From positions 1 through 35,348 of the forward strand of contig JASGMV010000042.1 in NCBI GenBank assembly GCA_030156255.1: a stretch of DNA of 35,348 nucleotides, in the 5' to 3' direction. Made by a program: the position numbers and the translations under genes. Shown here in pieces: positions 4,001 through 24,331 of this stretch; the stretch's first letter is position 1, and each line of letters begins with the position of its first letter. Below the pieces are notes generated by a model. The model saw nothing but the letters and a program-made list of their open reading frames with translations, searched no databases and was not told where the DNA came from. This DNA comes from Desulfovibrionales bacterium. Its GTDB lineage: Bacteria > Desulfobacterota > Desulfovibrionia > Desulfovibrionales > Desulfovibrionaceae.

Positions 4001-4006
4001 AAAAAA

Positions 4007-4276
4007 TCACTCCTTGGGTTCTTTCAGCGGCGAAAGCTTAGACCGCATACAGCACTTGTAGCAAGGCGGTACGGAGTTGTCGACTATTTGCCCGTATTTA
4101 TTCATTCTTTCATCAAGTTGCATGCAGGGGGCGCCGCCGCCTGGCTTCCCCGCGTGGGCGCAGGGGCAGAAGCCGCAGCCTTTGGACGTTTTGCCCACGA
4201 GCTTGCGCCCGAATGCGAAGACAAGATACGCCCCGGCCCCGATGAGGATCAGGACGACAACCAGCGTTTGCCACAT
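4007..4276 (-). CDS. FeoB-associated Cys-rich membrane protein
   Basis: This 89-residue protein has one N-terminal membrane segment (LVVVLILIGAGAYLVFAF) followed by a basic patch and a Cys-rich tail with CGFCPC, a single Cys, and CYKCC. The arrangement matches the FeoB-associated Cys-rich membrane proteins (PF12669-like) found in feo operons of anaerobes, although it is longer than the common 50-60-residue form. The Cys clusters suggest binding of Fe(II) or an iron-sulfur centre, which is inference. The gene lies between two FeoA genes on the same strand, 15 bases after the first, and its last codons carry the ribosome site of the next feoA. I see no strong ribosome site for this gene itself, so translation may depend on coupling. 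Confidence 0.8.
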   Translation of the reverse strand: MWQTLVVVLILIGAGAYLVFAFGRKLVGKTSKGCGFCPCAHAGKPGGGAPCMQLDERMNKYGQIVDNSVPPCYKCCMRSKLSPLKEPKE

Positions 4277-4291
4277 CTTGACGGAGCGGCG

Positions 4292-4543
4292 TTACGACAG
4301 AAGGCCTGCCGGTTGGGCCAGGATTTTACAAGCCAGTTGTTGGCCGAGTACGAGGTCGGAGCCTCGAACCCGCACACGCAGGGGGCCTGGGCCGTTGGCT
4401 ACGATCTCGACCTCCGTTCCGGGAGTCAGCCCAAGGGCGCACACTCGCAGCCTCCCCCGGCGCCCGGCGCAAAGCTGGGACACAATCGCTTTGCTGCCTG
4501 CCGGATAAGAGGAAAGGGGGCGAAATCCGTTGTTCGTACTCAT
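4292..4543 (-). CDS. feoA: Second FeoA-domain protein, first gene of the feo operon
   Basis: This is an 83-residue FeoA-domain protein (motif VCALGLTPGTEVEIVANGPGPLRVRVRGSDLVLG), distantly similar to the other FeoA here but with CALGLTPG where that one has IRDMGLVPG. I chose the ATG at 4543 (MSTNNGF) over an in-frame ATG at 4588. The longer version would translate the Fur-like box and the -10 promoter element, and its extra 15 residues look nothing like FeoA. With the chosen start the predicted transcript has a leader of only about ten bases and no good ribosome site. FeoA pairs of this kind occur in anaerobes and may differ in partner; that is inference. Confidence 0.88.
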   Translation of the reverse strand: MSTNNGFRPLSSYPAGSKAIVSQLCAGRRGRLRVCALGLTPGTEVEIVANGPGPLRVRVRGSDLVLGQQLACKILAQPAGLLS

Positions 4544-4555
4544 GGCGTTCGTTAA

Positions 4556-4588
4556 ATTGATAATTAATTTCAATCGCAAAGTTGTCAA
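4556..4588 (-). promoter_or_regulatory. feo operon promoter with overlapping Fur-like box
   Basis: On the minus strand a perfect -35 TTGACA (4583-4588) is followed after 17 bases by AATTAT (4560-4565) as a -10. Over that -10 lies the near-palindrome ATTGATAATTAATTTCAAT (4556-4574, plus strand), whose central 15 bases match the 7-1-7 Fur consensus TGATAATnATTATCA at 12 of 14 specified positions. Fur with Fe(II) bound there would block RNA polymerase, so the feo genes should be induced by iron shortage. The elements are seen; binding is inference from the Fur family. Confidence 0.75.
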
Positions 4589-4722
4589 GCATTAAATGGG
4601 CCTGCGGGGGCTCTTCACCCTGGCGTGTTGCCCCCGGGAGTGTTCTCGGGTAAGGAATACCTCTTGCGCGCGTCGCGCCTGAAACAGCCCGCCACGCTAA
4701 CCAGCCAGGAATCATTGAACCT

Positions 4723-7974
<3,252 letters not shown>

Positions 7975-7997
7975 GCGGGCGCCTGCACCGAGGCGAG

Positions 7998-9404
7998 ATG
8001 AAAAAGGAATATTGCGGCCTTTTCGGCATTTACGGCCATCCCGAGGCCGCCCGTTTGGCCTATTTCGGATTGTACGCCCAGCAGCACCGCGGGCAGGAGT
8101 CCGCGGGCATCGTCACCTGGGACGGGGGCAGAATCCGCGAGCATCGCGGCATGGGGCTGGTGGCCGACGTTTTCAACGAACGCCATTTGGGGAAGGAACT
8201 CAAGGGCTCCGTGGCCGTGGGGCACATTCGTTACTCCACCACCGGCGTGTCCCTGATCCGCAACGCGCAGCCTTTTTTGGTGCATTTCCAGGGGGTCCAC
8301 CTTGCCGTGGCCCACAACGGCAACCTGGTCAACGCCTACGAACTGCGGCGCGAACTGGAGGCCGAGGGCTCCATCTTCCAGACCACCATGGACACCGAGG
8401 TCTTTGTCCATCTGCTGGCCAAGTATCTCATCAATTCGACCATGGAGGATGCGGTGGTCAAGGCCTGCTCCAGGGTCAAGGGCGCCTACTCCCTGTTGCT
8501 GCTGGCCAACGACAAGCTCATAGCGGTCAAGGACCCCAACGGTTTTCGGCCGCTGGCCCTGGGCCGTCTCGGCGACAACTACTGCTTCGCCTCGGAAACC
8601 TGCGCTTTCGACCTTATCGAGGCCGAATACCTTCGTCCGCTGGAGCCGGGCGAGATGGTGGTGGTCCAGGACGGGAAACTGAAAAGCCGCCGTCTGGAGC
8701 AGCAGGCGAACCCCACGCCCTGCATTTTCGAGCTGATCTATTTTTCCAGGCCCGACTCCGTGGTGTTCGGGGAAGTCGTCTACGAAGCCCGCAAACGCAT
8801 GGGCGCTATCCTGGCCGAGGAGGCTCCCGTGGAGGCGGACTTCGTCATGCCTTTCCCGGATTCAGGCAATTATGCGGCTCTCGGCTACTCGGCCAAATCG
8901 GGCCTGCCCTTGGAGCTGGCCATGATCCGCAACCACTACGTGGGGCGGACTTTCATCCAGCCCACTCAGGACAGCCGCGATTTCGGAGTCCGCGTCAAGC
9001 TCAATCCCGTGCGCTCCACGATCCAGGGCAAGCGGATCATCATTGTGGAGGACTCCATCGTGCGGGGCACTACCATCCGCACCCGCGTCAAGAAGCTGCG
9101 GGAGCTTGGCGCGAGGGAAATCCACATGCGCGTGGCCTGTCCGCCGATTCGCTACCCCTGCTACTACGGCATCGATTTTTCCTCCAAGGGCGAACTCATC
9201 GCAGCCCATCAAAGCGTCGAGGACATCGCCAGGTTCATCGGCCTCGATTCTCTCCATTATTTGAGCGTCGAAGGCTTGCAGCGGGCCGTGGAGCGTCCCT
9301 TGAACCATTGTTACGCATGTTTTACCGGGGAGTACCCCGTCAATCCGGACGGCCGCCAGGGGAAGCTTTGCCTGGAGACCGACGGAGACGATTGCGAGGA
9401 TTGA
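7998..9404 (+). CDS. purF: Amidophosphoribosyltransferase
   Basis: PurF catalyses the first step of purine synthesis, transfer of glutamine nitrogen to PRPP. I start the protein at MKKEYCGLFGIYGH (468 residues). Cys6 would become the N-terminal nucleophile after removal of a five-residue propeptide, as in the Bacillus subtilis class. An in-frame ATG 90 bases upstream lies inside carB and would bury this Cys. The class II glutaminase domain (QQHRGQESAG, GHIRYSTTG, AHNGNLVN) is followed by a phosphoribosyltransferase domain with IVEDSIVRGTT as PRPP loop. Four Cys in the right places (TPCIFE, VACPP, and the pair NHCYAC near the C-terminus) indicate the [4Fe-4S], oxygen-sensitive type. It is followed by the next gene after a single base. 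Confidence 0.97.
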   Translation: MKKEYCGLFGIYGHPEAARLAYFGLYAQQHRGQESAGIVTWDGGRIREHRGMGLVADVFNERHLGKELKGSVAVGHIRYSTTGVSLIRNAQPFLVHFQGVHLAVAHNGNLVNAYELRRELEAEGSIFQTTMDTEVFVHLLAKYLINSTMEDAVVKACSRVKGAYSLLLLANDKLIAVKDPNGFRPLALGRLGDNYCFASETCAFDLIEAEYLRPLEPGEMVVVQDGKLKSRRLEQQANPTPCIFELIYFSRPDSVVFGEVVYEARKRMGAILAEEAPVEADFVMPFPDSGNYAALGYSAKSGLPLELAMIRNHYVGRTFIQPTQDSRDFGVRVKLNPVRSTIQGKRIIIVEDSIVRGTTIRTRVKKLRELGAREIHMRVACPPIRYPCYYGIDFSSKGELIAAHQSVEDIARFIGLDSLHYLSVEGLQRAVERPLNHCYACFTGEYPVNPDGRQGKLCLETDGDDCED

Positions 9405-9405
9405 A

Positions 9406-10395
9406 ATGGCGGTGGAGCCGTCGCCAAAGGACCACGTGGCTCGCGGCCGCGAGGTGCTGGACATAGAAATCGAAGGATTGCAGGCGGTTCGCGATCAGCT
9501 GGGAGAAGGATTCTCTAAAGCTGTAGAGATGCTTGCGGCCTGCTCCGGCAGAGTGGTGGTCACAGGGATTGGAAAATCCGGGCTGGTGGGCCGAAAAATT
9601 GCGGCCACCATGTCCTCCACGGGCACGCCTTCCTTCTTTTTGCATCCGGTGGAAGGCGCCCATGGCGACATGGGCATGATCCAGCCCGCGGACGTGACCC
9701 TGGCTATTTCCAATAGCGGGGAAACCGACGAACTCAACGCCATTTTACCGGTTATTCGGACCTTGGGCGCGGGGATTGTGGCCATGACCGGCGATGTGTC
9801 CTCCACTTTGGCGCGCATGGCCGACGCGGTGATCGAGGTTCGCACGCCGCGGGAGGCCTGCCCCATGGGCATGGCGCCCACCGCGTCCACCACGGCGACT
9901 TTGGCCGTGGGCGACGCCCTGGCCGTGCGGCTCATGGATCTGCACAGCTTCAAGTCGTCGGACTTCAGGCGGTTCCATCCCGGCGGCGTCCTGGGGGGCC
10001 GGTTGGCGCTGCTCGTGGATGAGCTCATGCACAGCGAGGATTTGCCCACCGTCTCCGAAGACGCTTTGCTGGAGGATGCGTTGCGGGTACTGGACGAACG
10101 CCGTCTGGGCCTCGCCGTGGTCACGGACGGCGCCGGCCGCCTGGTCGGCGTGGTCACGGACGGCGACGTGCGCCGCCTGGTCCGCCGGGGCGGGCTGGAC
10201 CCGCGCGCTTGCGTGTCCGAGATGATGACCCGCAATCCTCGCAAGGCGATCAGCGGCGCCAAGGCCGCTTTGGCTCTTGACACCATGGAGAACCATCAGA
10301 TTACCGTGCTGCCAGTGGTTGGCCCGGAGGATAAGCTGATGGGCGTGGTTCACATGCACGACCTGCTGGGCAAGGGGCGAGTAAAATTCGGTTGA
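9406..10395 (+). CDS. kdsD: D-arabinose 5-phosphate isomerase (KpsF/GutQ family)
   Basis: This 329-residue enzyme interconverts ribulose 5-phosphate and arabinose 5-phosphate, the first step towards Kdo of lipopolysaccharide. The N-terminal SIS domain is clear (VVVTGIGKSGLVGRKIAATM, then GDMGMI and ISNSGETDEL), and the family segment with TASTTATLAVGDALAVRLM follows. Two CBS domains fill the C-terminus (from about residue 205; VTDGDVRR and HMHDLLGKG). Length equals the E. coli KdsD, 328 residues. It begins one base after the purF stop and its stop overlaps the TTG start of the next gene, so it is cotranscribed. A tandem kdsD/kpsF paralogue elsewhere in the genome cannot be excluded, hence the symbol is by family. 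Confidence 0.95.
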   Translation: MAVEPSPKDHVARGREVLDIEIEGLQAVRDQLGEGFSKAVEMLAACSGRVVVTGIGKSGLVGRKIAATMSSTGTPSFFLHPVEGAHGDMGMIQPADVTLAISNSGETDELNAILPVIRTLGAGIVAMTGDVSSTLARMADAVIEVRTPREACPMGMAPTASTTATLAVGDALAVRLMDLHSFKSSDFRRFHPGGVLGGRLALLVDELMHSEDLPTVSEDALLEDALRVLDERRLGLAVVTDGAGRLVGVVTDGDVRRLVRRGGLDPRACVSEMMTRNPRKAISGAKAALALDTMENHQITVLPVVGPEDKLMGVVHMHDLLGKGRVKFG

Positions 10396-10967
10396 ACGTC
10401 CGCGCCCCCGAGGGGATTTTGCAGAGTCCGGATATCTGCCGCCGTTGCGCCGAGACCGGCCCCACCTGCTGTTGGTTGAATCCAGGCGGGGTCGACGCCT
10501 TGTTCCCTATTTCCGACCCCGAATGGCGACGCATCCGCGAGGCTTTTCCCGATGCGGGCGGTTTCCAGCAGGTTCCGAATTCGGCGGATTTTCTTTGCAG
10601 GCTCGCCCGGCTGTTTCCCCGGGAGAAAGACCTGCTTCCCGAGATTTTTCACCCTCGCAAGCACCACTACGCCCTGGCGGTCAAAGAAGAGGGGGGCTGC
10701 CGTTTTCTGGGACCCTCCGGGTGCGTCATTCCGCTGGAGTGCCGGCCGTATTATTGCAGGATTTTTCCGTTTTGGGTGACGGACAATGACGTTTGCGTCG
10801 TTGATTTCACAAGTTGCCTGGCCTGGCGGGAAGGCCGGTCGACTTTCAGAATGACCGAGTTTTTCGGCCTGACCGAGGCCCAAATCCGCGATCTCCACGG
10901 AAGGCTGCGCATCGCCTGGGGGTTTCCGCCCAAGGCGGGGATGGAGTTCGCAAAAAAGGGATTGTAG
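10392..10967 (+). CDS. YkgJ-family Cys-rich cluster protein
   Basis: This 191-residue protein belongs to the YkgJ/CxxCxxCC family thought to bind zinc or an iron-sulfur cluster. Visible Cys motifs are CRRCAETGPTCC near residues 16-27, GGCRFLGPSGC, LECRPYYCRIFPFW and a further FTSCLAW. The start is TTG at 10392, overlapping the preceding stop (TTGA), with GGGGCGAG about a dozen bases upstream; without it the first Cys motif would lose its N-terminal flank. The biochemical role is not established for the family. Its position three bases before a class A penicillin-binding protein gene, and after a Kdo pathway gene, gives a cell-envelope context but no proof of function there. Confidence 0.85.
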   Translation: MNVRAPEGILQSPDICRRCAETGPTCCWLNPGGVDALFPISDPEWRRIREAFPDAGGFQQVPNSADFLCRLARLFPREKDLLPEIFHPRKHHYALAVKEEGGCRFLGPSGCVIPLECRPYYCRIFPFWVTDNDVCVVDFTSCLAWREGRSTFRMTEFFGLTEAQIRDLHGRLRIAWGFPPKAGMEFAKKGL

Positions 10968-10970
10968 CGC

Positions 10971-13328
10971 ATGAGTCGAGGCAAAAAGATCGTCGCCTGG
11001 ATCGTAGGCCTGATGGCCTTGATGGCCGTGGCCGCCGCGGGCGGGATGATCGCTTTGTATTTTTGGGCCGTTCAGGAGCTTCCGAGTTTCAAGAAGCTTA
11101 CCGACTACCGGCCGCCGCTGGTGACCACGGTCACGGCTCAGGACGGCAGGCTGTTGGGATATTTCTACCGCGAACGCCGTTTTCTCGTCCGGCTGGACCA
11201 AATGTCCCCCTGGGCCTCCAAGGCCTTTCTGGCTGCGGAGGACGATACGTTCTATCAGCATGAAGGCGTGGACGTGCGCGCCATTTTTCGAGCCTTCGTC
11301 GCGAACCTGAGGGCCGGGGACATCAGACAGGGCGGCTCCACCATTACCCAGCAGGTCATCAAGCGGCTGCTGTTGTCTTCGGAAAAAAGCTACGAGCGGA
11401 AACTCAAGGAAGCCATCCTGGCCTACAGGTTGGAAAAGTATCTCTCCAAAGACGAAATTCTGACCATTTATCTCAATCAGATATTCTTCGGCGCAGGCGC
11501 CTACGGCGTCGAGGCTGCGGCCCGGACCTATTTCGGCAAGCACGCCGCGGACCTGACCCTGGCCGAAGCCGCCTTGCTGGCCGGCCTGCCCAAGGCGCCC
11601 AGCCATTACGATCCCTATAAGCATCCGGAGCTGGCCCGGCTGCGGCAGAAATACGTGCTGGACCGGATGCTTGATCTACGGTGGATTTCCCGCAAGCAAT
11701 ATGAACAGGCCGTGAATGAGCCTCTGGTCTACCAAAGCATGCCGGACCCGTCCTGGAGCATCGGTCCGTACTATCTCGAAGAGGTTCGCCGCCAGCTGAT
11801 CGCCATGTACGGCGAGGACATGGTCTACGAGGGCGGGCTCACCGTCCGCGCGGCCTGCAGCCTCGACCATCAGATCGTGGCGGACGAAGCGTTGAAGAAT
11901 GGATTGATCGCCTCCACCAAACGCCGCGGTTGGCGCGGCCCCGTGGCTGCGGCGACCTCGGCCGAACTCGCCGGAGGCGTGTTCGGGGACCTTCAGCCCG
12001 AGCAGGATTTGAAGCAGGGCCAGTGGGTCAAGGCCGCAGTCCTGAAGGTGGAGGAGAGCGGGGCGCAGGTTTTGTTTGGCAATAGGACCGCCGATATGCC
12101 GGTGGCGTCCATGGGCTGGGCTCGAAAGCCCGACCCCGAAGTCGCGCATGACTTCGTGAAGGACATTGCCGACGCCCGCAAGGTGCTGAAGAAAGGCGAC
12201 GTGGTCTGGGCCTCGATCCAGGAGTTTCCCGACAAGTCCAATAAGGGCCGGTTCATTCTCGGTCTGGAGCAGGAGCCGGAGATCGAAGGCGCCCTGGTCT
12301 CCATGGACCCTAAAACTGGAGACGTGCTGGCTTTGAGCGGCGGCTATTCCTTCGCCCGCAGCCAGTTCAACCGCGCCACCCAGGCCGCCAGGCAGCCGGG
12401 CTCGGCCTTCAAGCCCATCGTGTACTCCGCGGCCCTGGACAACGGCTACACCGCCGCCTCCGTGGAGATCGACGGCCCCATCACCTACGACGACAAAGAG
12501 CATAACAAGATTTGGCGGCCCCAGAACTTCGAAAACAAGTTTTACGGCCCGACGTTGCTGCGCACCGCGTTGGTCAAGTCCAGAAACTTGGTGACCATCC
12601 GTGTGGCGCAGAAGATCGGAGTGGACGCCATCATCGACCGGGCCGAGGCCTTGGGTCTGGAGACGGACTTCCCGCGCGACCTGTCCGTAGCCCTGGGCTC
12701 GGCTTCGGTGACGCTGCTGAACCTCTGCCAGGCGTACACGGCCTTTCCCCGAGGCGGCTCCTGCGTCAAACCCCGCTTGATTCTCGACGTGAAAAGCGCC
12801 TGGGGCGATACGATGTACGCCTCGCGTGAGGAGACCTACGACGCCATCAGCCCCCAGACCGCTTACATCATTGCCAGCCTGATGGAGGAAGTCGTCCAGC
12901 ACGGCACCGGGTTCCGGGCCAAGGTGCTGCACCGGCCCGTGGCCGGCAAGACCGGCACCAGCAACAATGAGCAGGACGCTTGGTTCATCGGGTACACGCC
13001 CTACCTGTTGACCGGCGTCTTCGTGGGATTCGACCAGGTGAAGCCCATGGGCCAGTACGAAACCGGCTCCCGCGCGGCCGCCCCTATCTTCGTGGAGTAC
13101 CGCAAGCACGTGGAGGGCAATTACACCGAGCAGGACTTCGAGCAGCCGCCCGGCATCGTCATGACGCGCGTAACGCCCGACGGCCTGCTGGCTGGCCCCA
13201 ACGCCAAGGAGAGCTACTTCCTGCCGTTCAAGGCCGGCACCCAGCCCACGCAGACCGCAGACGACGCCGAGGGTGCGGGCGGCCAGCAGCCTTCCTCGGG
13301 CGAGGATTTGTTCCGGCAGATTTTTTAA
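10971..13328 (+). CDS. mrcA: Class A penicillin-binding protein (PBP1A type)
   Basis: This bifunctional peptidoglycan synthase has 785 residues. One N-terminal membrane segment (IVGLMALMAVAAAGGMIALYFW) anchors it in the inner membrane. The glycosyltransferase domain shows FLAAEDDTFYQHEGVD (catalytic Glu near residue 87), GGSTITQQVIKRLLL, and ILTIYLNQIFFG. The transpeptidase domain shows the SxxK motif at Ser478 to Lys481 (GSAFKP), SRN as SxN, and KTGTSN at Lys660. The region between the two catalytic domains, residues about 290-420, fits the OB-like domain of PBP1A. The Pro-, Gly- and Gln-rich tail is probably disordered. It is the last gene of the carB run; no clear terminator follows before the AT-rich gene at 13447. 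Confidence 0.96.
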   Translation: MSRGKKIVAWIVGLMALMAVAAAGGMIALYFWAVQELPSFKKLTDYRPPLVTTVTAQDGRLLGYFYRERRFLVRLDQMSPWASKAFLAAEDDTFYQHEGVDVRAIFRAFVANLRAGDIRQGGSTITQQVIKRLLLSSEKSYERKLKEAILAYRLEKYLSKDEILTIYLNQIFFGAGAYGVEAAARTYFGKHAADLTLAEAALLAGLPKAPSHYDPYKHPELARLRQKYVLDRMLDLRWISRKQYEQAVNEPLVYQSMPDPSWSIGPYYLEEVRRQLIAMYGEDMVYEGGLTVRAACSLDHQIVADEALKNGLIASTKRRGWRGPVAAATSAELAGGVFGDLQPEQDLKQGQWVKAAVLKVEESGAQVLFGNRTADMPVASMGWARKPDPEVAHDFVKDIADARKVLKKGDVVWASIQEFPDKSNKGRFILGLEQEPEIEGALVSMDPKTGDVLALSGGYSFARSQFNRATQAARQPGSAFKPIVYSAALDNGYTAASVEIDGPITYDDKEHNKIWRPQNFENKFYGPTLLRTALVKSRNLVTIRVAQKIGVDAIIDRAEALGLETDFPRDLSVALGSASVTLLNLCQAYTAFPRGGSCVKPRLILDVKSAWGDTMYASREETYDAISPQTAYIIASLMEEVVQHGTGFRAKVLHRPVAGKTGTSNNEQDAWFIGYTPYLLTGVFVGFDQVKPMGQYETGSRAAAPIFVEYRKHVEGNYTEQDFEQPPGIVMTRVTPDGLLAGPNAKESYFLPFKAGTQPTQTADDAEGAGGQQPSSGEDLFRQIF

Positions 13329-13446
13329 CGCCTGTTGCTGGAATTGTTGGGATATGATCCATGAAGTAAAAAGTAGACAGCGTCACTTCACGCTGTCATC
13401 AGCAAGAACGGATTTCAGAAGACAAAAATTTTCCGTCGGGGACGCC

Positions 13447-14139
13447 ATGGCTTCTTTGCTCCAAAAAAGAATTTGTTTCTTTTGGCGCTGTACCTTGTGG
13501 TCGCTCGCCATCGCAGCAGGCGTGCAACTATCCCTTCAGACAGTCTGTTTTGCGGATCAAGCAGAAACCATCACCGGAAGTTATTGTTATACGTACAGTG
13601 ATGACGAAAGTTTGATCGAAGCCAGAGAGAAGGCAAAGTATTTGGCGATACAAGACGCCGTTCAATCACATAGGGTCTATATTGAATCTTTTGCGTCCGT
13701 TAATCTTGGCGTTCTTGAAAAGGACTATATTTATTCTATAGCGAACGGACTTGTTAAGAATGTGAAAACTGTCAGTAGAGAAGAAAACAATCGCAGGGTA
13801 TGCATAAAAATCCATGGAACGATTATCCCCTCGGAAGTAAAGCATATAATAAAAAATGTTGAGAGGAAAAAAAATTTAATTCTACCAAAAACGGATAATG
13901 CAGAGGTGGTAACGGCGAAAATAAAGAATGACCAAGTCCGCGTGCTCGTCAAAATGCTTCATAGCAACTTATATTTTAAACTACATTGTGATTATGTTGA
14001 TAGCGATGGCGATGTCGTTAATTCGGACTACAGGCGCTTTCGGGTAAGCTCTGAGGATGTAGGTAAGATCTTTGTATTTAATTTCCCTCTTCCCGAGGAG
14101 AAACAAGCCTCTTCTTTTCTGGTCCGGCTGACTGACTAA
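13447..14139 (+). CDS. Secreted LPP20/FlgT-N-like protein, AT-rich
   Basis: This is a 230-residue protein of unknown function. I start it at MASLLQKRIC because a GGGGAC sequence lies five bases upstream and the first 36 residues then form a signal peptide ending CFA before DQAE; earlier in-frame starts lie over the PBP gene. The first half of the mature part resembles the LPP20/FlgT N-terminal fold: a beta strand with TGSYCYTYSDDE, the helix EAREKAKYLAIQDAV, then GLVKNVKTVSREENNRRVCIKI. These domains occur in periplasmic and outer-membrane proteins, some near flagella. The second half (LYFKLHCDYVDSDGDVV) looks like a beta sandwich. Codon use is visibly AT-richer than both neighbours, consistent with transfer. 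The family call is weak, the gene itself is fairly certain. Confidence 0.7.
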   Translation: MASLLQKRICFFWRCTLWSLAIAAGVQLSLQTVCFADQAETITGSYCYTYSDDESLIEAREKAKYLAIQDAVQSHRVYIESFASVNLGVLEKDYIYSIANGLVKNVKTVSREENNRRVCIKIHGTIIPSEVKHIIKNVERKKNLILPKTDNAEVVTAKIKNDQVRVLVKMLHSNLYFKLHCDYVDSDGDVVNSDYRRFRVSSEDVGKIFVFNFPLPEEKQASSFLVRLTD

Positions 14140-14598
14140 GCGGCGGATGCGCTGCTGGCAAAAGTTTCAGGCTCCTGCGCACTCACCCGCGCCCGCCGAT
14201 TGTTTCGAGCGGTCGAACGTTCTTTTCGGGCGATCCTGGAGTTGGGCGGGCTCCTGGTTTCGTACGCTTTCGGTTTTCCTTGCGCCACAGACTTGTGTGT
14301 GGATCGTATCAGTTTGCCGGGAGAGAGGACAGCTGTCTGTTTTTTGTCTCACTGCCTTGTCGAGAAGCTGAAGTCTGTTTCTACAATCCGCCGGGTCACT
14401 TTTGGATAAGCTGGAAACGCTGTTACAACACACGCAAGGCGCCAATCCCGCGGTTTGTCGATTACAACTTCAATCTCAACGAGGGCTTGCAGTTTATCGG
14501 ATTGGACGAGTTTGCGAAATACGGGCTGCGCTTGACCTGGAGACGCAATGTTGTGGCCGCCAGGGGCGCACCAAAAGGGTAGACGCTACGTGCCTTTT
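14140..14598 (+). other. Gap with possible gene remnant
   Basis: No complete gene is convincing in these 459 bases. Two pieces read like protein in different plus frames: RLFRAVERSFRAILELGGLL (about 14190-14250) and, shifted, PRFVDYNFNLNEGL followed by QFIGLDEFAKYGLRLTWRR (14445-14550, stop at 14582). The second has GC-biased third positions like host genes. The two could be parts of one gene broken by frameshifts. I cannot assign a family. No transcription terminator was recognised for either flanking gene. Confidence 0.3.
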
Positions 14599-18493: not shown

Positions 18494-19099
18494 ATGCGAA
18501 ATTCTTGGCGAATCGATTCCCCTTTGGTGTTGGCCTCCGCCTCTCCGCGTCGGCGCGACTTGCTGTCCTCGGCCGGAATTCCTTTGGAAATCGTTCCCAG
18601 CCGGGCGGCGGAGCCGGCGCCGTCTCCCGGTGAGGACCCGGCCGGCTACGCCCGCCGACTGGCGCAGCTTAAAGCCTTGGACGTGGCCGAAGGCTTGCCC
18701 GGCCGGCTTGTTTTGGGAGCGGACACGGTGGTGGCGCTCGGCGGCGAGGTTTTGGGCAAGCCGCGGGATGCGGCCCACGCCCTGGAGATGCTGACGCGCT
18801 TGCGCGGCGCCGAGCACGCGGTGCACACGGGCGTCTGCATCGTGTTTCCGGACAAAAGCGCGCAGGATTTCGTCGCCACGACACGGGTGTGGTTCTGGGA
18901 GGCGCCCATGGAGATGGTGGCGGCCTACGCCGCGTCCGAGGAGGTCCTAGACAAAGCCGGCGCCTACGCCATCCAGGGAAACGGCGCGTTTCTGGTCAAG
19001 GAGATCGCGGGATCGTACACCAACGTCGTCGGGCTGCCCCTGGCGAGAGTTCTGGAGGTGTTGGTGGAGTGGGGTGTTGAGGCTCCGAGCCCCGGTTAG
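18494..19099 (+). CDS. maf: Maf-family nucleoside triphosphate pyrophosphatase
   Basis: Maf proteins hydrolyse non-canonical or modified nucleoside triphosphates to the monophosphate, as housecleaning enzymes. The 201-residue product has the N-terminal signature [18 protein letters not shown], the central [11 protein letters not shown] with its acidic metal site, the segment [13 protein letters not shown], and the C-terminal [19 protein letters not shown] followed by [11 protein letters not shown]. The start is the ATG at 18494; the ribosome site is poor. The last 26 codons occur again, diverged, at 20580-20657, so this 3' end may have been replaced by insertion. A strong terminator follows 29 bases after the stop. 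Confidence 0.95.
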
Positions 19100-19128
19100 G
19101 TTAGATTCATCCAACTTGTTTTATTCAG

Positions 19129-19168
19129 AATGGCGCACAGCTCAGAGACATGTTGTGCGCCATTTTTC
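19129..19168 (+). terminator. Rho-independent terminator after maf
   Basis: Arms AATGGCGCACA (19129-19139) and TGTGCGCCATT (19154-19164) pair perfectly over 11 bases with a 14-base loop, and the stem runs into TTTC on the plus strand. It would end maf transcription. It may belong either to maf or to the DNA inserted after it. Confidence 0.85.
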
Positions 19169-19442
19169 AGGGCATACATCATTTCAAGCGTTTTGATTTC
19201 AGCCGCATATTTTCTATCCCCGTAACCACCATATTGTTCGTTTCATTCTTCATCCTGTAAGTCAAAACATGTCCACTGGTTCGTGGGGACCGCTCGATAG
19301 GAATTTAGGCGTTCCTTGAATTGAACGGCGATCGCAACGTCTGGGTCTCAAGTTTAGCTTTGAGATCCGCAGCACCGTTTCCAGGCAGGATTCCCATCTG
19401 CTCTTGTTTTTGATGTCGCCTCCAGGTGTTAGCCTACTCCAT
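19169..19442. other. Non-coding stretch with a minus-strand frame remnant
   Basis: No full gene is present. On the minus strand one frame is open from about 19435 to a stop at 19312 and reads like protein (RRHQKQEQMGILPGNGAADL then KAKLETQTLRSPF), downstream of the zinc-ribbon gene. It has no start codon with a ribosome site of its own except an internal ATG. It may be the tail of a broken gene. A short hairpin (TCTCAA/TTGAGA) falls inside it. Confidence 0.3.
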
Positions 19443-19649
19443 TTAGGGCATTTTAAAGGTTGCGCCACAGTTTCTACACTTGTTATTAAAAACTTGATAG
19501 TTCTCGCAATTTGGGCATCGTTTCCCTTTGCCTCCTTTTCCGTCGTTCGGAGGGGCTTCCATTTCATAGCCGCAGTGAGAGCATTTTCTGCCAGTAGGAG
19601 TTTTAAAAAATGTTTGCTCGGCACAGTTTGGACAGACTTTTCCAGCCAT
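19443..19649 (-). CDS. Small double zinc-ribbon protein
   Basis: This 68-residue protein consists of two zinc ribbons: CPNCAEQTFF...CSHCGYEM in the N-terminal half and CPNCENYQVFNNKCRNCG in the C-terminal half, eight Cys in four CxxC pairs, joined by a Gly/Lys-rich linker (DGKGGKGKR). A GGAGG ribosome site lies four bases before the ATG, which makes it a real gene despite its size. It has no membrane segment or signal peptide. Such stand-alone ribbons may bind nucleic acid or act as adaptor domains; none of this can be decided here. It lies on the opposite strand to, and diverges from, the toxin-antitoxin pair, between the two copies of the maf 3' end. Base composition is lower in GC than maf. 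Confidence 0.75.
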   Translation of the reverse strand: MAGKVCPNCAEQTFFKTPTGRKCSHCGYEMEAPPNDGKGGKGKRCPNCENYQVFNNKCRNCGATFKMP

Positions 19650-19779
19650 GTTTCCTCCAAGTGGTTTTGATTTTGGTTTTTGTATGATTCCTCATTGAAC
19701 TACATATACACATTTCTACAAGATATATTTTTTATAATAATTTAATTATACTAAGTTGTTACTGGTTTGAGTTGCGCAC

Positions 19780-19829
19780 TTGCCAATCCCCTTGCGTGGT
19801 CCTGTAAAGAAGAGTAGGATTTAGTCCTA
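19780..19829 (+). promoter_or_regulatory. Promoter and candidate operator of the parD/parE pair
   Basis: TTGCCA (19780-19785) and TGTAAA (19803-19808), 17 bases apart, form a fair sigma70 promoter. Just downstream are two overlapping inverted repeats: TAGGA-5 nt-TCCTA (19815-19829) and TTTAG-2 nt-CTAAA (19820-19831). Antitoxins with a ribbon-helix-helix fold usually repress their own operon at such repeats. An ACGGAGG ribosome site follows before the ATG at 19848. Repression is inference. Confidence 0.5.
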
Positions 19830-19847
19830 AACAGTACGGAGGACGCC

Positions 19848-20126
19848 ATGCGATCGACCAGACAGATGAGCATCACGCTGCCCCATGAGATGGCGCGGAT
19901 GGTGAAGGATAAGGTGGCCAAGGGCGAGTACGCCACGGAAAGCGAGGTAATCCGTGACGGATTGCGAGCTTTGCTTGCGCGTGACCGGGCTGTTGAGGAA
20001 TGGCTCAGACAGCAGGCCGCCCCGGTATATGACGCCATGCGGAAAGACCCGTCCCGGGGCAGAAGCCTGGGGCAGGTGCGGGCCCGGTTGGCGGCGGAGT
20101 ATGATGCTGGAGCCGCTGACTCCTGA
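19848..20126 (+). CDS. parD: ParD-like ribbon-helix-helix antitoxin
   Basis: This 92-residue protein begins with a ribbon-helix-helix domain (MRSTRQMSITLPHEMARMV, then KGEYATESEVIRDGLRALLARD) of the ParD/CopG type. The acidic and Arg-rich C-terminal tail (RDPSRGRSL-like, here MRKDPSRGRSLGQVRARL) would wrap the toxin. Antitoxins of this family bind DNA as dimers, neutralise ParE-type toxins and repress the operon. A strong ACGGAGG ribosome site is present and the stop overlaps the toxin start by one base (TGATG), the normal coupling for such modules. Upstream inverted repeats are candidate binding sites. Confidence 0.9.
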   Translation: MRSTRQMSITLPHEMARMVKDKVAKGEYATESEVIRDGLRALLARDRAVEEWLRQQAAPVYDAMRKDPSRGRSLGQVRARLAAEYDAGAADS

Positions 20127-20449
20127 TGTCCTGCACAGTCATTTTCTCGCCTGAAGCTGAAGAGCAGCTTGTCGAGCTATATAGATACGTGGCTGAGGTC
20201 GCTTCTCCCGAGGTGGCTGCCGAATTCACCGACGCCATTGTCGTGCACTGCGGAGAACTGAAGGACTTCCCCCAACGGGGGACCATGCGCGACGATATCC
20301 GCCCCGGGCTGAGGATCACCCACTACAAGAAACGCACGATTATAGCGTTCGCGGTTCTGGACGACACCGTTGCCGTTCTCGGTATCTACTATGGCGGACA
20401 GAACTATGAAGAAAAACTCGACGATACAACGGATGGCGACCAACAGTGA
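20126..20449 (+). CDS. parE: ParE/RelE-superfamily toxin
   Basis: This 107-residue protein has the ParE fold signature: SPEAEEQLVELYRYVAEVAS in two N-terminal helices, then HCGELKDFPQRGTMRDDIRPGLR, and the beta sheet RITHYKKRTIIAFAVLDDTVAVLGIYYGG. ParE relatives poison DNA gyrase, RelE relatives cleave mRNA; the partner antitoxin of ParD type and the sequence PQRGTMRDDIRPGLR favour ParE, but activity cannot be told from sequence. The start overlaps the antitoxin stop. The C-terminal tail (EEKLDDTTDGDQQ) is acidic and longer than usual. The reading frame is intact, so the pair may be functional. Confidence 0.9.
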   Translation: MSCTVIFSPEAEEQLVELYRYVAEVASPEVAAEFTDAIVVHCGELKDFPQRGTMRDDIRPGLRITHYKKRTIIAFAVLDDTVAVLGIYYGGQNYEEKLDDTTDGDQQ

Positions 20450-20579
20450 TATTTCGGAGGATAAGCGGAATATTTGCTCGATTTTGTGCAGTATTTCGGA
20501 CGCAACGTCCCACATTTGTTCCCACGTAAATCGTATGTTTTCAAAAAATGCACATGGTTACAAAGTATTTCTTTCGATC

Positions 20580-20657
20580 AACGTCGTGGGCTTGCCCCTG
20601 GCGCGCGTGCGGGAAGTTCTACTATCTTGGAAAGTTGTCGTCCCAATGAAAACCTAG
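20580..20657 (+). pseudogene. maf: Displaced 3' end of maf (last 26 codons)
   Basis: This fragment reads [20 protein letters not shown] and then five further residues to the stop, against [20 protein letters not shown] in the maf gene. Both run exactly 26 codons from the Asn codon to a TAG stop with no gap. The first 25 bases (20579-20603 against 19021-19045) differ at three positions only, and several differences are synonymous (GTC/GTG, CTG/TTG), so this was a translated maf from a different lineage, not a random match. There is no maf 5' part nearby. The frame is open upstream to 20370 without meaningful sequence. It ends 24 bases before the DinB-like gene. Confidence 0.8.
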
Positions 20658-20681
20658 CAATTGAAATTTCATGAGGTAGCC

Positions 20682-21188
20682 ATGCCAAGCATAAATGCAA
20701 AAGAAATTGAAGCCATCCTACGCTCCTTGTCAGATTCCATCACCATATTCGAGGGTTTTCTTCGTTCAATTCCACCAGATAAGCTGGATGAAAGGCGGGG
20801 TGAGACCTTCTGGTCCATTCATGAACATGCCGATCATTTGGCAGGTGTCCAGCCCATGCTTCTGGAACGGATGCGACGGATACTATCCGAAGATATGCCG
20901 GAGTTCATACCGTTTATCCCGGAACAGGATGAGGTGGTTGAAGAAGCGACGCTTCATACTGTTAGGGAGATTATCGAACAATTCAAAGCAATGCGGGAAA
21001 AACAGCTTGATCTTCTTAAGAACGTAGGACCGGAAGACTGGGAAAAAATGGCGTTTCACCCCGAGTACGACCAATACGGACTGCTCATTCTGGCGCGTCA
21101 CGTTTTCATGCATGACCATTGGCACCTGTACCGCATGGAAGAACTTTGGTTGACCAAGGATGAATATCTGACGCGGCTTGAAGGTTAG
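20682..21188 (+). CDS. DinB-superfamily protein
   Basis: This 168-residue protein belongs to the DinB/YfiT-like four-helix family of putative metal-dependent enzymes. The likely metal ligands are in FWSIHEHADHLAG (about residues 48-52) and the C-terminal ILARHVFMHDHWHLYRMEE. I start at MPSINAKEIE, which has GAGG seven bases upstream; a TTG start seven codons earlier is less likely. Family members include mycothiol- and bacillithiol-dependent transferases, and many are uncharacterised, so a reaction cannot be given. It lies directly after the maf 3' fragment and directly before an IS3 remnant. Codon use is moderately AT-rich. Confidence 0.85.
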   Translation: MPSINAKEIEAILRSLSDSITIFEGFLRSIPPDKLDERRGETFWSIHEHADHLAGVQPMLLERMRRILSEDMPEFIPFIPEQDEVVEEATLHTVREIIEQFKAMREKQLDLLKNVGPEDWEKMAFHPEYDQYGLLILARHVFMHDHWHLYRMEELWLTKDEYLTRLEG

Positions 21189-21393
21189 CAATCTACGTCA
21201 ATGACCGGCCAAGCGCTCTGAGCGTGATGTCCCGACTTGGAGACTGGTTCGAGGACTACAACGAAAATCACCCGCACAAAGGCTTGCGGGTGTGTCACCC
21301 AGGGAATACATCAGGTCGGAGGAATTGTCGGCGCCCCGTCGGCGGCTCCGGAATGATCAACTGGAGGTGTCCGGTTTAGCGGGGGCAACTCCA
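21189..21393 (+). mobile_element. IS3-family insertion sequence remnant (3' end)
   Basis: Right after the DinB-like stop, one frame reads YVNDRPSALSVMSRLGDWF followed by EDYNENHPHKGLR, and after a one-base shift the reading continues SPREYIRSEE (from 21292). This is the C-terminal end of an IS3-family OrfB integrase-type transposase, including the WFEDYNENHPHKGLR...SPREYI block. The sequence TGTCCGGTTTAGCGGGGGCAACTCCA-like end (to about 21393) fits the terminal repeat of such elements. The rest of the element is absent, so it is dead. The following 252 bases up to the FkbM gene stop hold no gene I can support. Confidence 0.75.
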
Positions 21394-21645
21394 GGCAAGT
21401 ACAAGCAAAAGAAATTCAAGTACGCGGCTGTAAAGATTGAACAAGCCCAAGGCTGTTGGCGGATCGAATCTCTTTTCATCATGTTGTTGTATGGGCCATG
21501 ATGCGCCATGCAGCTAGGTAGACGCCTAAAAATTATAAAGTTGTGGTATCTTCCTGCTGAACTTCCCAGCAGATTTACACTTGATTACCCGCATGCTTGG
21601 ACGTGGCCGCGGCGTTTTCCGGTGGGATAGGAGCATTGAGATATA

Positions 21646-22752
21646 TTACTGTCGGGCAAAAAGCACATCAATGATCGGAGAATCTTGGTGTTCATATTTG
21701 AATTTTACTTTAAATCCCCTCGTTTGCATGTATTGATAGATATCAATCGAGTAATTATTTCTTTCGGTGTCCAGTTCGATTTGAACTTCTTTTAGCGCAT
21801 CGTTTGCGAAGGTGTTCTCACCTCCCGCCAGGATGAGGTCTTCATTTCCGTCAACATCGATTTTTATATAGTTTGGCGATGGAAGCGATGCTACGTGGAA
21901 AAAAGTATCAAGTTTCATTCCAAGAGCAAATTGCGTTTGAACTACGGGCCTGCATCGATAGTCTGATTTTTCTAGCTTATTGAAGCTATGCCTTGCCGAC
22001 CCTCCTTCTGTGGAGCTTAAAAAAAGCGTCGATATGGAGTCCGTTGCGCAAAGCGCAACAGGGCATGGAATAATCAGTTTGCCAAAATTGTTAAGACGAA
22101 TGTTTGTATCGAGTAGGCGAATATTTTCAATAAAAGGCTCGAAAGCGTAAACGGTGCAGCCTTTGGCGGCGGCAAGAAGGGACATCACTCCAACATTGGC
22201 GCCAATATCAAAAAAGACAGACTGATCTTCAAATGAAGCTATCCAATGCATGGTGTGGGATTCATGGTCGAAATTACGCGCCAGCCAGTATGTGGTGGGA
22301 GAGGGACACGCCATTTTAAAGCTTCCAAAAGACGATTGCACCACCGTTCGGCACGTGCGCTCCAGCGATTCTATAAGATAAAATCTTAAGTCCGCATCAA
22401 GTGAAACTATTGAGTCAGCGATGTTGGCAAGGGCTTCTTTGCTATAATCGGCAATATTGTCGACATCAAAAATTTTATAATGAATACTGGCGGCATCCAG
22501 TCCTTTCATAATTTCTAAATAGGAATTTGAACAAACAACGACTGTTTCCTTGATGCATTTTTCGCTATCGAACTTTCGCAGAGGAAACCCCATAAACTCG
22601 CCATCTTTAAAAGAATCGAGAAAATACAATATACCGACGTCAGGTCTTCTTCTGCGAATTAGATCGACAAACAATACGGCGCCACTTCCAGAACCATAAA
22701 CAACAATTTTATCATCAGCTGGAATTTCATTCAAAGAACGGAGAAAGGTCAT
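21646..22752 (-). CDS. FkbM-family methyltransferase with extra N-terminal domain
   Basis: This 368-residue protein carries a C-terminal FkbM-type SAM-dependent methyltransferase domain: VFFDIGANVGVMSLLAAAKG (SAM site), VYAFEPFIENIRLLDTNI, and NYIKIDVDGNEDLILAGG. FkbM relatives methylate hydroxyls of polyketides and of surface sugars. The first 110 residues (KIVVYGSGSGAVLFVDLIRR, then ILYFLDSFKDGEFMGFPLRK) form a Rossmann-like domain typical of sugar-modification genes, so a surface glycan target is plausible. I start at MTFLRSLNEI because AGGAG lies seven bases upstream; the 31 upstream residues are not family-like. Base composition is clearly lower in GC than the surrounding genome, a sign of acquisition. 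No other glycan genes lie beside it. Confidence 0.88.
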   Translation of the reverse strand: MTFLRSLNEIPADDKIVVYGSGSGAVLFVDLIRRRRPDVGILYFLDSFKDGEFMGFPLRKFDSEKCIKETVVVCSNSYLEIMKGLDAASIHYKIFDVDNIADYSKEALANIADSIVSLDADLRFYLIESLERTCRTVVQSSFGSFKMACPSPTTYWLARNFDHESHTMHWIASFEDQSVFFDIGANVGVMSLLAAAKGCTVYAFEPFIENIRLLDTNIRLNNFGKLIIPCPVALCATDSISTLFLSSTEGGSARHSFNKLEKSDYRCRPVVQTQFALGMKLDTFFHVASLPSPNYIKIDVDGNEDLILAGGENTFANDALKEVQIELDTERNNYSIDIYQYMQTRGFKVKFKYEHQDSPIIDVLFARQ

Positions 22753-23044
22753 AGCAACTCCTGAAGCATGCTGATCGTAACGTGTAGCTCGACATTCGAC
22801 TGGCCCCGTCTGTTCACTGATACCCAACGCTCGTGATTTCCTCAACGAAAGAATCCCCGGATGGGCTTTTAGAAAACAAAAGGGCGCCGCCCGAAGTCAG
22901 GGGAAGCGGCGACAGGAACGCCGATCTCTCGGAATGCGTCATCTCCCTGATGGCGCGATACGTCGTGTAACGGCGTTGTCATAGGCAACCAAAATGCTTT
23001 TACATAACTCTAGAACGAATACGAAATTTAAATTTATGCCGGGG
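22753..23044. other. Divergent intergenic region
   Basis: These bases separate the FkbM gene (minus) from the His-rich gene (plus). I see no gene in them; the open frames on both strands lack ribosome sites and family features. The part near 23020-23040 is AT-rich with a palindrome-like AAATTTAAATTT. The promoter for the plus-strand gene lies at its right edge. Confidence 0.5.
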
Positions 23045-23072
23045 TTGTCGCCTCGCAAAACGGAGCTATAAT
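23045..23072 (+). promoter_or_regulatory. Promoter of the His-rich protein gene
   Basis: TTGTCG (23045-23050) and a perfect TATAAT (23067-23072) stand 16 bases apart. Transcription would start near 23079, giving a leader of about 29 bases before the ATG at 23108, which includes an AAAGGAG ribosome site. I could not recognise a Zur, NikR or other metal-regulator site. Confidence 0.6.
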
Positions 23073-23107
23073 TCTGAATGGAGACATTCAAACAAAGGAG
23101 CTTGAAA

Positions 23108-23404
23108 ATGTGCAAGACTTGCGGTTGCAATTTGGGAAAGGACAAGGTGGTGCATGAGCATACGCATGGCGAAATGGGCGCCCATGATCACGAGCACGAA
23201 CACGAACACGCCCATGTGCATGAACACACGCACGCTGACGGCGTCACCCACTCGCATGAGCACTGCCACGTGCATAGTCACCCCCATAGCCATTCCCATG
23301 ACCACGGCGTTGACGGCGAGCATGAACACGGACACGGCGCCCACAGCCGCGATAATGACCATGCCCATTCCGATGGTGATGGGCACAACCACATTCACGG
23401 CTAA
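23108..23404 (+). CDS. Small His-rich metal-binding protein with HypB-like N-terminus
   Basis: This is a 98-residue protein with 31 histidines, most in HxH alternation (for example HDHEHEHEHAHVHEHTH). It opens with MCKTCGC, which resembles the CxxCGC high-affinity nickel site at the N-terminus of HypB, but no GTPase domain follows: the protein is the metal-binding head only. No signal peptide is present, so it is probably cytosolic. Binding and storage of Ni(II) or Zn(II), perhaps for hydrogenase maturation, is inference. The ATG at 23108 has AAAGGAG seven bases upstream and a strong promoter precedes it; a perfect terminator hairpin follows, so it is transcribed alone. The repetitive coding makes several long open frames in the other phases. 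Confidence 0.85.
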   Translation: MCKTCGCNLGKDKVVHEHTHGEMGAHDHEHEHEHAHVHEHTHADGVTHSHEHCHVHSHPHSHSHDHGVDGEHEHGHGAHSRDNDHAHSDGDGHNHIHG

Positions 23405-23466
23405 TTACCTAGCCAGCTTACCAGTATGGCGCGGCTCCAGACGGGTAAGAGCACAGCGCTTATGCA

Positions 23467-23495
23467 AAAAGAGGACGGATTTTCCGTCCTCTTTT
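23467..23495. terminator. Bidirectional terminator between convergent genes
   Basis: AAAAGAGGACGGA (23467-23479) and TCCGTCCTCTTTT (23483-23495) form a perfect 13-base-pair stem with a three-base loop and A/T tracts on both sides. It would end transcription of the His-rich gene (plus) and of the DUF4870-like gene (minus), which converge here. Confidence 0.93.
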
Positions 23496-23526
23496 AAAGG
23501 GGGGGCCTTCCCCCAGTTCTTCCTTG

Positions 23527-23880
23527 CTAAAACCAGCCGGTTCCCATGGGTTTTTCGTCCCACATGGCCAACCCGCCCTTGATGACCCGTCCGAGATACC
23601 AGATGCTCACGACGAACATGATAACGTTTCCGATAAAAGCGAAACTCAGCAGCACGCCGATGAGGGCCCCGATCAGCGAAAACCAGAAAGTGCGAATCAA
23701 CCAGGCGATGTGGGAGTCCAATACCATGGACTGGCGAAAGCTCGAACGTTTGACGTAGCAAATGATGATGCCGATCAGAGGGAAGAATATGAAAAGTCCA
23801 TAGGTAACCAAGATCAAGCTCTTGTACTTGGCGACGATATCTTGATCGGCTCCGTTCGTTGTGTGAAAGTCTTCCGGCAT
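23527..23880 (-). CDS. DUF4870-like membrane protein
   Basis: This 117-residue protein has three predicted membrane segments: LVTYGLFIFFPLIGIIICYV, FWFSLIGALIGVLLSFAFIG and a third reading VIMFVVSIWYLGRVIKG. Between the first two is a conserved-looking loop, RQSMVLDSHIAWLIRTF, and the C-terminus is short (GGLAMWDEKPMGTGWF). This layout matches small predicted membrane proteins of the DUF4870/COG3671 type, whose function is unknown. I start at MPEDFHTTNG, behind AAGGAG, rather than at an in-frame ATG 105 bases upstream. Downstream it shares a terminator with the His-rich gene. Confidence 0.8.
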   Translation of the reverse strand: MPEDFHTTNGADQDIVAKYKSLILVTYGLFIFFPLIGIIICYVKRSSFRQSMVLDSHIAWLIRTFWFSLIGALIGVLLSFAFIGNVIMFVVSIWYLGRVIKGGLAMWDEKPMGTGWF

Positions 23881-24331
23881 GTTCCTTTCTCCTTGGGATG
23901 AGGCCGTGTCGGCGTCGGACGGCATGGAAGTTATGAGGTTATCGAAAAAAATACTGCAGTAACAAGAATTTCGCGCATCCTCCATGCGGCGGCTACGACA
24001 ATCGCATTGTAACCGCTCAGCAAAAGATTATAACTCCATATTAAGAATATGTATAGGCTTGGGCTATTGCAGGCCGGGATTGGCGCTGAACGAATCGCTT
24101 CTGTGACATCATAATTGCATCCCGGCGCCAAAGAACATTTGTTTTGGTTTTCTGGGGCGAAAATCGCAAGGGTGCGTTTATGGTCGTCCATTTCCCGTTT
24201 GAGGGACAAATGCGTTATTGACGAAAAATGGCGATGCTTTCGGGACGGGACGACGCGCAAGGGGCGGCGTTCGACGGAGCGGGGATGCGCGCCGTTGCGC
24301 CACGTTGCAGCAGGTGAAGGGGGTGCTTCTA
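23881..24331. other. Intergenic stretch without a supported gene
   Basis: About 450 bases separate the divergent DUF4870-like and QueG-like genes. The part at 23930-24060 is AT-rich and includes a perfect short inverted repeat, CATATT-AAG-AATATG (24037-24051), which could be an operator. The part after 24200 is GC-rich and open in two plus frames that continue into the next gene, but without start signals. I see no RNA gene. Confidence 0.45.

What the first reader, a model, noticed from the sequence alone, without database searches (positions are those of the whole stretch)
19021..20657. maf 3' end duplicated around a toxin-antitoxin and zinc-ribbon cassette
The last 26 codons of maf (from Asn at 19022 to TAG at 19099) recur at 20580-20657, ungapped, in frame, with the stop in the same place. 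The first 25 bases differ at three positions, and several codon differences are synonymous, so the second copy once was a translated maf end of another lineage. This is the known pattern of an element that inserts in the 3' end of a gene and brings a replacement end. The 1.56 kb between carries only the ParD/ParE pair, a zinc-ribbon gene and debris, with no integrase. A short maf-targeting cassette, or the shrunken remains of a larger island, would be a little-described integration site. Which copy is native cannot be told here.
Basis: partly seen in the sequence, partly recalled or inferred. Interest (0 to 1): 0.7.

Follow-up and report, generated by a model that had tools for sequence, protein, structure and literature searches.

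The report
Integrase-less cassette in maf gene end
A small toxin-antitoxin DNA cassette has inserted into the very end of the housekeeping gene maf, giving the gene a replacement end and pushing the original end 1.6 kb away; a number of related bacteria carry one or several such inserts at the same spot, so it is a recurrent docking site for mobile genes.

Summary
The last 26 codons of maf (19022-19099) recur at 20580-20657; a junction profile built without the window finds the second copy at E 3.4e-16. It is best read as site-specific integration. In three relatives the dinB-superfamily gene that follows copy 2 here starts 8 to about 32 nt after maf, so copy 2 is the displaced native end and copy 1 came with the 1,558-bp insert. 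Of 288 genomes of the family, 28 (13 genera) carry such junctions apart from maf itself, in 24 of them downstream of maf on the same contig, sometimes in tandem. Most of those read break at the Asn codon of NVVGLP. In the best preserved, the window's included, a CCCAC-N7-CCCAC pair lies about 70 nt upstream; the same pair lies in the last codons of a tyrosine integrase whose only intact copy found ends 42 nt before a maf end in genome G023. The insert is most likely an integrase-less, CIME-like derivative of a maf-specific integrative element. Its ParDE cargo is 76-82% identical in another genus whose maf bodies are under 50% identical where measured, so it moved horizontally. Whether cassettes move in trans, integron-like, or are decay products is open.

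The parts
18494..19099 (+). maf (Maf-like protein), intact reading frame; its last 26 codons come from the insert
   Evidence: PF02545 E 5.2e-58; only full copy in the genome
19022..19099 (+). maf 3' end copy 1 (attL side), replacement end brought by the insert (inferred)
   Evidence: inferred from the native position of copy 2
19443..19649 (-). 68-aa double zinc-ribbon protein, cargo
   Evidence: Zn_ribbon_3 E 1.1e-5, below Pfam cut-off; no relative in 99 other maf loci
19848..20126 (+). ParD-type antitoxin, cargo
   Evidence: PF03693 23.9 bits, cut-off 21; 79-82% identical to cargo in G241, G242, G244
20126..20449 (+). ParE-type toxin, cargo
   Evidence: PF05016 E 2e-11; 76-77% identical in G242 (100 aa) and G244 (73 aa), remnant pieces in G241
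20506..20529 (+). right-end motif CCCAC-N7-CCCAC (putative paired arm-type sites); one frame reads RPTFVPT*, possible relic of the integrase tail
   Evidence: intact integrase tail SPTKVPTKLRLVG* in G023
20557..20579 (+). conserved right terminus GTTACA..GATC up to the crossover region
   Evidence: junction profile and alignment A2
20580..20657 (+). maf 3' end copy 2 (attR side), displaced native end, starting at the Asn codon of NVVGLP
20682..21188 (+). dinB-superfamily gene, native downstream neighbour of maf
   Evidence: PF12867 E 2.9e-13 (from 20685); starts 8 to about 32 nt after maf in G262, G063, G184
21521..21615 (+). remnant of another element's left end, without maf codons
   Evidence: left-end profile E 1.2e-8

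Best explanation
The 1,558-bp insert is an integrase-less derivative of a family of integrative elements whose attachment site is the 3' end of maf. Shown: copy 2 sits where maf's own end sits in three relatives, directly before the dinB-type gene; most downstream copies read in other genomes break at the same codon; the better preserved junctions carry the same right-end motif; an intact tyrosine integrase ends 42 nt before a maf end in G023, a broken one stands in the same place in G030, and a fragment lies just after a maf end in G002. Inferred: a tyrosine recombinase exchanged strands inside the roughly 24-nt conserved core AACGTCGTSGGCYTGCCCCTGGC, so maf stayed whole by taking the element's 3' end while the native end was pushed aside; the CCCAC-N7-CCCAC pair is the recombinase's arm-type site and overlaps the 3' tip of the lost int gene; the cassette can now move only if a related integrase is supplied in trans or by a neighbouring element (CIME-like). 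The ParDE pair is cargo that may stabilise the cassette.
For: Empty sites: dinB-type gene 8, 17 and about 30 nt after maf in G262, G063, G184; 24 nt after copy 2 in the window. Same architecture in G264: maf, a GNAT gene, right-end motif, core, worn maf end, dinB. Profiles built without the window find its junction. 28 of 288 family genomes carry non-maf junctions (two unclear single matches proved to be maf); of the 17 that gave no training row, 15 have one on the maf strand 0.1-4 kb downstream of their own maf. Perfect CCCAC-N7-CCCAC in 12 of 43 secondary junctions (7 training rows, 5 not), 0 of 80 maf genes, 28 of 4000 random positions. Integrase: intact in G023 (PF00589 E 3.9e-19), 57-61% identical fragments in G030 and G002. 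After the motif, G061 reads QLRLVG* and G002 HLRMVK*, like the integrase tail KLRLVG*. ParD 80-82% and ParE 76% identical to G241/G242 cargo (ParE only a remnant in G241) against maf body 46-48%.
Against: The window's left end lacks the AAAATCGTACATTCG or paired CCCAC signature found after the maf stop in 15 of 100 loci by script. 31 of 43 secondary junctions lack a perfect arm pair (rows of L039, L040, L062, L109 and hits ending before the core were dropped). The PT..PT reading follows from the motif itself, seen in some frame in 9 of 18 junctions, so in the window it adds little. No close maf-type integrase is in the window's genome (best 37% identity) and none in 100 maf loci. In G023 maf and the integrase lie on different contigs, so continuity is inferred. 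Copies in G037, G026 and the second extra end of G245 extend upstream into maf and lack the GATC terminus; G203 has such a copy at a contig edge. So one mechanism may not cover all. No circular form or excision was observed.
Confidence: 0.85

Rival explanations
1. In-situ decay (one version of the best explanation): a full-size integrative element entered maf once and shrank by deletion to its cargo and ends; small cassettes are worn remains and never moved as such.
For: Possible int-tail relics at right ends; a broken integrase before a maf end in G030 and a fragment after one in G002; worn maf ends and a missing left-end signature in the window.
Against: The same ParDE pair occurs in arrays of two genera, before a maf end in G242 and the window and after one in G241; G241, G242 and G256 have three or four extra ends and no maf-type integrase in the stretches searched; a 170-nt unit between two ends in G002 is too short for a gene.
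Confidence: 0.48
2. Trans-mobilised gene cassettes (the other version): minimal units with two recombination ends are captured, exchanged and stacked at maf by an integrase supplied elsewhere, working like an integron without being one.
For: Tandem ends in G241, G242, G245, G256, G277; cargo shared across genera: ParDE, and a GFA gene 87% identical in G242 and G256; ends conserved although the integrase is missing.
Against: No genome seen with both an intact maf-type integrase and a cassette array; intact integrase found once; many junctions are worn. A GNAT gene shared by four loci lies beyond dinB in G256, so it may be a native neighbour there.
Confidence: 0.36
3. Homologous or illegitimate duplication of the maf 3' end, with later unrelated insertions between the copies.
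For: Longer duplications in G037 (108 codons), G026 and one copy in G245 lack the GATC terminus.
Against: The window and most copies read break at one codon and carry a conserved terminus that is not maf sequence.
Confidence: 0.05
4. Decayed second maf gene in tandem.
For: In-frame 26-codon similarity.
Against: No maf codons upstream of copy 2; the break falls at the same codon in many genomes.
Confidence: 0.01

Closest known systems
ssrA genomic islands of Dehalococcoides (PMC3146451, passages seen)
   Same: Tandem islands downstream of one conserved gene, bounded by repeats of its 3' end; a conserved motif beside the repeats; 15 islands without an integration module, which the authors suggest might be cis-mobilizable.
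   Different: Target is tmRNA, not a protein gene; recombinase is a serine recombinase (DsiB, CcrB-like). Neighbouring maf ends here are 0.1-4.3 kb apart.
CIME (cis-mobilizable element) and tandem accretion (PMC5704250, passages seen; ICESt1 type case from its reference list)
   Different: maf target; very small units, down to 170 nt without a gene; parent element inferred from G023 and fragments; conjugation module not looked for.
SCC elements at rlmH in staphylococci (recalled; search listing only)
   Same: Insertion in the 3' end of a conserved protein gene, composite arrays with repeats, elements lacking the recombinase.
   Different: Ccr serine recombinases; Gram-positive hosts.
Integron cassette arrays (recalled)
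   Same: Small cargo such as TA genes, shared between arrays, with recombination ends.
   Different: No integron integrase identified, attC folding not tested; the site is a coding gene end.

Membership tests
CIME (cis-mobilizable element) | flanked by attL and attR | tested here: met
   two maf ends, right-end motif, empty sites in relatives; the left-end motif is missing
CIME (cis-mobilizable element) | no integrase and no transfer genes inside | tested here: met
   only zinc ribbon and ParDE recognised between the ends; no PF00589 match on contig C66
CIME (cis-mobilizable element) | related autonomous element uses the same site | tested here: inconclusive
   integrase abuts a maf end in G023, but the element spans a contig break and its transfer genes were not examined
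CIME (cis-mobilizable element) | mobilised by accretion with a related element | not testable with these tools
   needs an excision or transfer assay
Dehalococcoides ssrA genomic island | target ssrA and DsiB serine recombinase | tested here: not met
   target is maf; associated enzyme is a tyrosine integrase
SCC element | rlmH target and Ccr serine recombinase | tested here: not met
   target is maf; associated enzyme is PF00589
Mobile or chromosomal integron | tyrosine integrase gene intI next to the array | tested here: not met
   no PF00589 match at E <= 1e-5 on contig C66
Mobile or chromosomal integron | attC sites in cassettes | not tested
   ends were inspected by eye only
ParDE toxin-antitoxin | RHH antitoxin followed by ParE toxin | tested here: met
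   PF03693 and PF05016 above cut-off, adjoining genes; activity not tested

The most novel reading that the evidence does not exclude
An integron-like capture system anchored in a protein gene: minimal cassettes (TA, GFA, GNAT, diguanylate cyclase and unknown genes) with two short recombination ends are stacked at, and exchanged between, maf loci of one bacterial family by a maf-specific tyrosine integrase acting in trans, and each arrival rewrites the C-terminus of Maf.
Probability: 0.32. Interest if true: 0.8.

Novelty: new variant of a known kind. Interest (0 to 1): 0.6.

Why it matters
It defines a recurrent integration site with recognisable ends, a candidate recombinase and empty-site controls, so cassette movement can be tested directly. 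It shows how integrase-less units from a few hundred bases to a few kb can stack at a housekeeping gene without breaking it, a middle ground between CIME remnants and integron cassettes, and it marks a place to look for undescribed cargo (three cargo proteins had no Pfam or PADLOC match). No paper on maf as an integration site appeared in searches of an open-access library, which misses most subscription journals.

Tried and rejected
Old tandem maf gene: disfavoured, no maf codons before copy 2. Chance: rejected. A phage source: not found; the integrase gave only weak hits in named phages and IMG/VR; the junction pattern in IMG/VR hit 11 contigs, of which one (L109) is a maf-end junction. G031's integrase (49%) has no maf end in the locus fetched. 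A first arm-pair count allowing two mismatches also fired on 25 of 80 maf genes and 95 of 2000 random positions; replaced by a stricter count. Maf tails against bodies (tails 62.7%, bodies 57.9% between genera in 17 loci with a left-end signature; 42.8% and 55.8% in 29 others) supports horizontal tails, but two of the 17 were added by eye and the 29 picked by hand, some with tails shorter than 78 nt. G013 first looked like an empty site but may keep a worn left end; G262, G063 and G184 were used instead.

Full report
What was checked. The window is contig C66 of an unnamed 3.84-Mb draft genome, G000. The last 26 codons of maf at 19022-19099 recur at 20580-20657 in frame and with the stop in the same place: 46 of 78 nt and 17 of 26 codon products agree, nine of the latter by synonymous codons. 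In 60 Markov shuffles of the next 5 kb the best match was 38. A DNA search of the genome with copy 2 finds itself, copy 1 and ten weaker short matches. Between the copies lie a 68-aa zinc-ribbon gene on the minus strand and a ParD/ParE pair. PF00589 has 11 matches in the genome, none on this contig.

Relatives. A profile of the Maf C-terminus (A1, 18 rows) matched 262 of 288 family genomes at E <= 0.5. I took the 100 genomes that I read in that table as having two or more matches, plus G037, and listed their matches. A subset of the extra matches begins at profile position 26-30, around the Asn of NVVGLP, runs to the stop, and lies on the maf strand 0.2-10 kb downstream. By this search G241 and G256 have three extra ends, G242 four (one at E 0.3), G245 and G277 two. 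Most remaining second matches are weak, cover other profile parts and sit in long frames; I take them for chance.

The ends. Most downstream copies printed start at the same codon and are preceded not by maf but by a shared terminus with GTTACA and GATC (alignment A2). Exceptions: G037, G026 and the second extra end of G245 extend upstream into maf sequence, and G203 has such a copy at a contig edge. A profile of 12 junctions without the window hits the window at 20505-20649, E 3.4e-16, and all its hits at E <= 0.1 are on the maf strand. Model R1 (15 junctions from 11 genomes, window left out) was run on 288 family genomes at E <= 0.001: 92 have a match, mostly the maf gene itself; 28 genomes in 13 genera have a match elsewhere. 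Two single matches whose nature was unclear are maf. In 24 of the 28 at least one match lies downstream of maf on the same contig; in G014 and G163 they lie elsewhere, in G023 and G030 on other contigs. Of the 17 genomes that supplied no training row, 15 carry it 0.1-4 kb downstream of their own maf on the same strand. In an order-wide sample of 297 genomes at E <= 1e-6, 60 had a match, 59 of them of the same family; the one outside, G043, matched at its own maf. E-values of R1 are rough. Neighbouring ends in the fetched loci are 0.1-4.3 kb apart.

The native copy. A dinB-superfamily gene follows copy 2, its ATG at 20682, 24 nt after the stop. Among 99 other maf loci this gene lies downstream of maf in 12 and upstream in two. 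In G262, G063 and G184 it starts 8, 17 and about 30 nt after the maf stop; these are empty sites. In G264 a GNAT gene (Acetyltransf_7 E 6.5e-13), a right-end motif, the core and a worn maf end lie between maf and dinB. Copy 2 is therefore best read as the displaced native end, and copy 1 as the end that came with the insert.

The recombinase. In G023 a 352-aa tyrosine integrase (PF00589 E 3.9e-19) ends 42 nt before a maf end. In G030 a broken relative (57%, stops inside) stands in the same place; in G002 a 61% identical fragment follows a maf end, and the next end is about 1 kb on. G023's maf, on another contig, ends 248 nt before the contig edge with a left-end motif; joining the two is inference. 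The DNA of the integrase tail SPTKVPTKLRLVG* contains CCCAC-N7-CCCAC, the pair found about 70 nt before the better preserved copies: perfect in 12 of 43 secondary junctions (7 training rows, 5 others including the window), 0 of 80 maf genes and 28 of 4000 random positions. A PT..PT reading was found in 9 of 18 junctions, but it follows from the motif; the parts beyond it are informative: QLRLVG* in G061 and HLRMVK* in G002. The window reads RPTFVPT*. That these are arm-type sites overlapping the 3' tip of int is inference. Two integrases (G023, G031) gave no tblastn hit at E <= 1 in 100 maf loci. Across 288 family genomes 158 have some match to the G023 integrase at E <= 1e-10, but the best after G023 itself is 49% (G031), with no maf end in its fetched locus. 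The window's own genome has at best a 37% relative.

Cargo. ParD is 79-82% identical in G241, G242 and G244; ParE is 76-77% in G242 and, over 73 aa, in G244, and a remnant in G241, while the maf bodies of the window and of G241 and G242 are 46-48% identical. The pair moved horizontally. A GFA gene is 87% identical in G242 and G256. Other genes between ends include a GGDEF protein (G241), a SnoaL-like protein (G245), a DUF3800 protein (G002) and three proteins with no Pfam or PADLOC match. A protein matching PADLOC PDC-S15 lies just beyond the last maf end found in G245, and a shared GNAT gene lies after a maf end in G242 but beyond dinB in G256, so their cargo status is uncertain.

Against this reading. 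The window's first cassette lacks the left-end signature seen in 15 of 100 loci by script. Most junctions lack a perfect arm pair. Some duplications have another form. GC content is low from 19001 to about 24000 and a left-end remnant lies at 21521-21615, beyond dinB, so the foreign stretch is larger than the finding and its history is not fully read.

Compared with the known. The closest described cases are the ssrA islands of Dehalococcoides, where tandem islands with ssrA repeats include 15 without an integration module (PMC3146451, passages), and CIMEs formed by decay and accretion (PMC5704250, passages). The insert meets the anatomical features of a CIME that could be tested; mobilisation was not testable. 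Target gene and enzyme class differ from the ssrA islands. Searches found no paper on maf as an integration site; passages of the nearest listings and a term search in one paper (no occurrence) concern other matters.

Verdict. The best account is an integrase-less cassette of a maf-specific integrative element family; trans movement against decay in place is undecided.

Noticed in passing
window 21521-21615: A left-end remnant of the same element family (E 1.2e-8) without maf codons, beyond the dinB-type gene and just after a possible IS3 remnant; unexplained.
   Followed up: partly
window 21224-21379: Short frame with a sub-threshold rve_3 integrase-core match (E 5.9e-5), possibly an IS3-family remnant.
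   Followed up: no
window 19001-24000: GC 0.43-0.57 per 500 nt against 0.55-0.68 upstream; holds an FkbM methyltransferase gene and a His-rich protein gene with no Pfam match. The foreign region may be about 5 kb.
   Followed up: partly
L039 (G037:C16) 2966-14517: An 11.5-kb stretch between maf and a 108-codon duplicate of its 3' end, with large helicase-like, methyltransferase-like, Fic-like and restriction-like frames named by eye only; no integrase recognised by eye.
   Followed up: partly
L061/L109 (G002:C31; IMG/VR 3300014656_006081): maf-end junctions near phage tail-like frames (by eye), a DUF3800 gene and a DndD-like frame (by eye), away from the genome's maf; the junctions also occur on a viral contig, so arrays may travel in prophages.
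   Followed up: partly
L040 (G026:C168): maf followed by a deaminase-like frame (by eye), a worn maf-end copy and then an AT-rich stretch with two frames; the order differs from the other arrays.
   Followed up: no
L045 (G242), L048 (G277), L049 (G061): Cargo proteins of 410, 355 and 225 aa between maf ends with no Pfam or PADLOC match.
   Followed up: no
L046 (G245) 6916-7713: Protein matching PADLOC PDC-S15 (E 1.5e-51) just beyond the last maf end found there.
   Followed up: no
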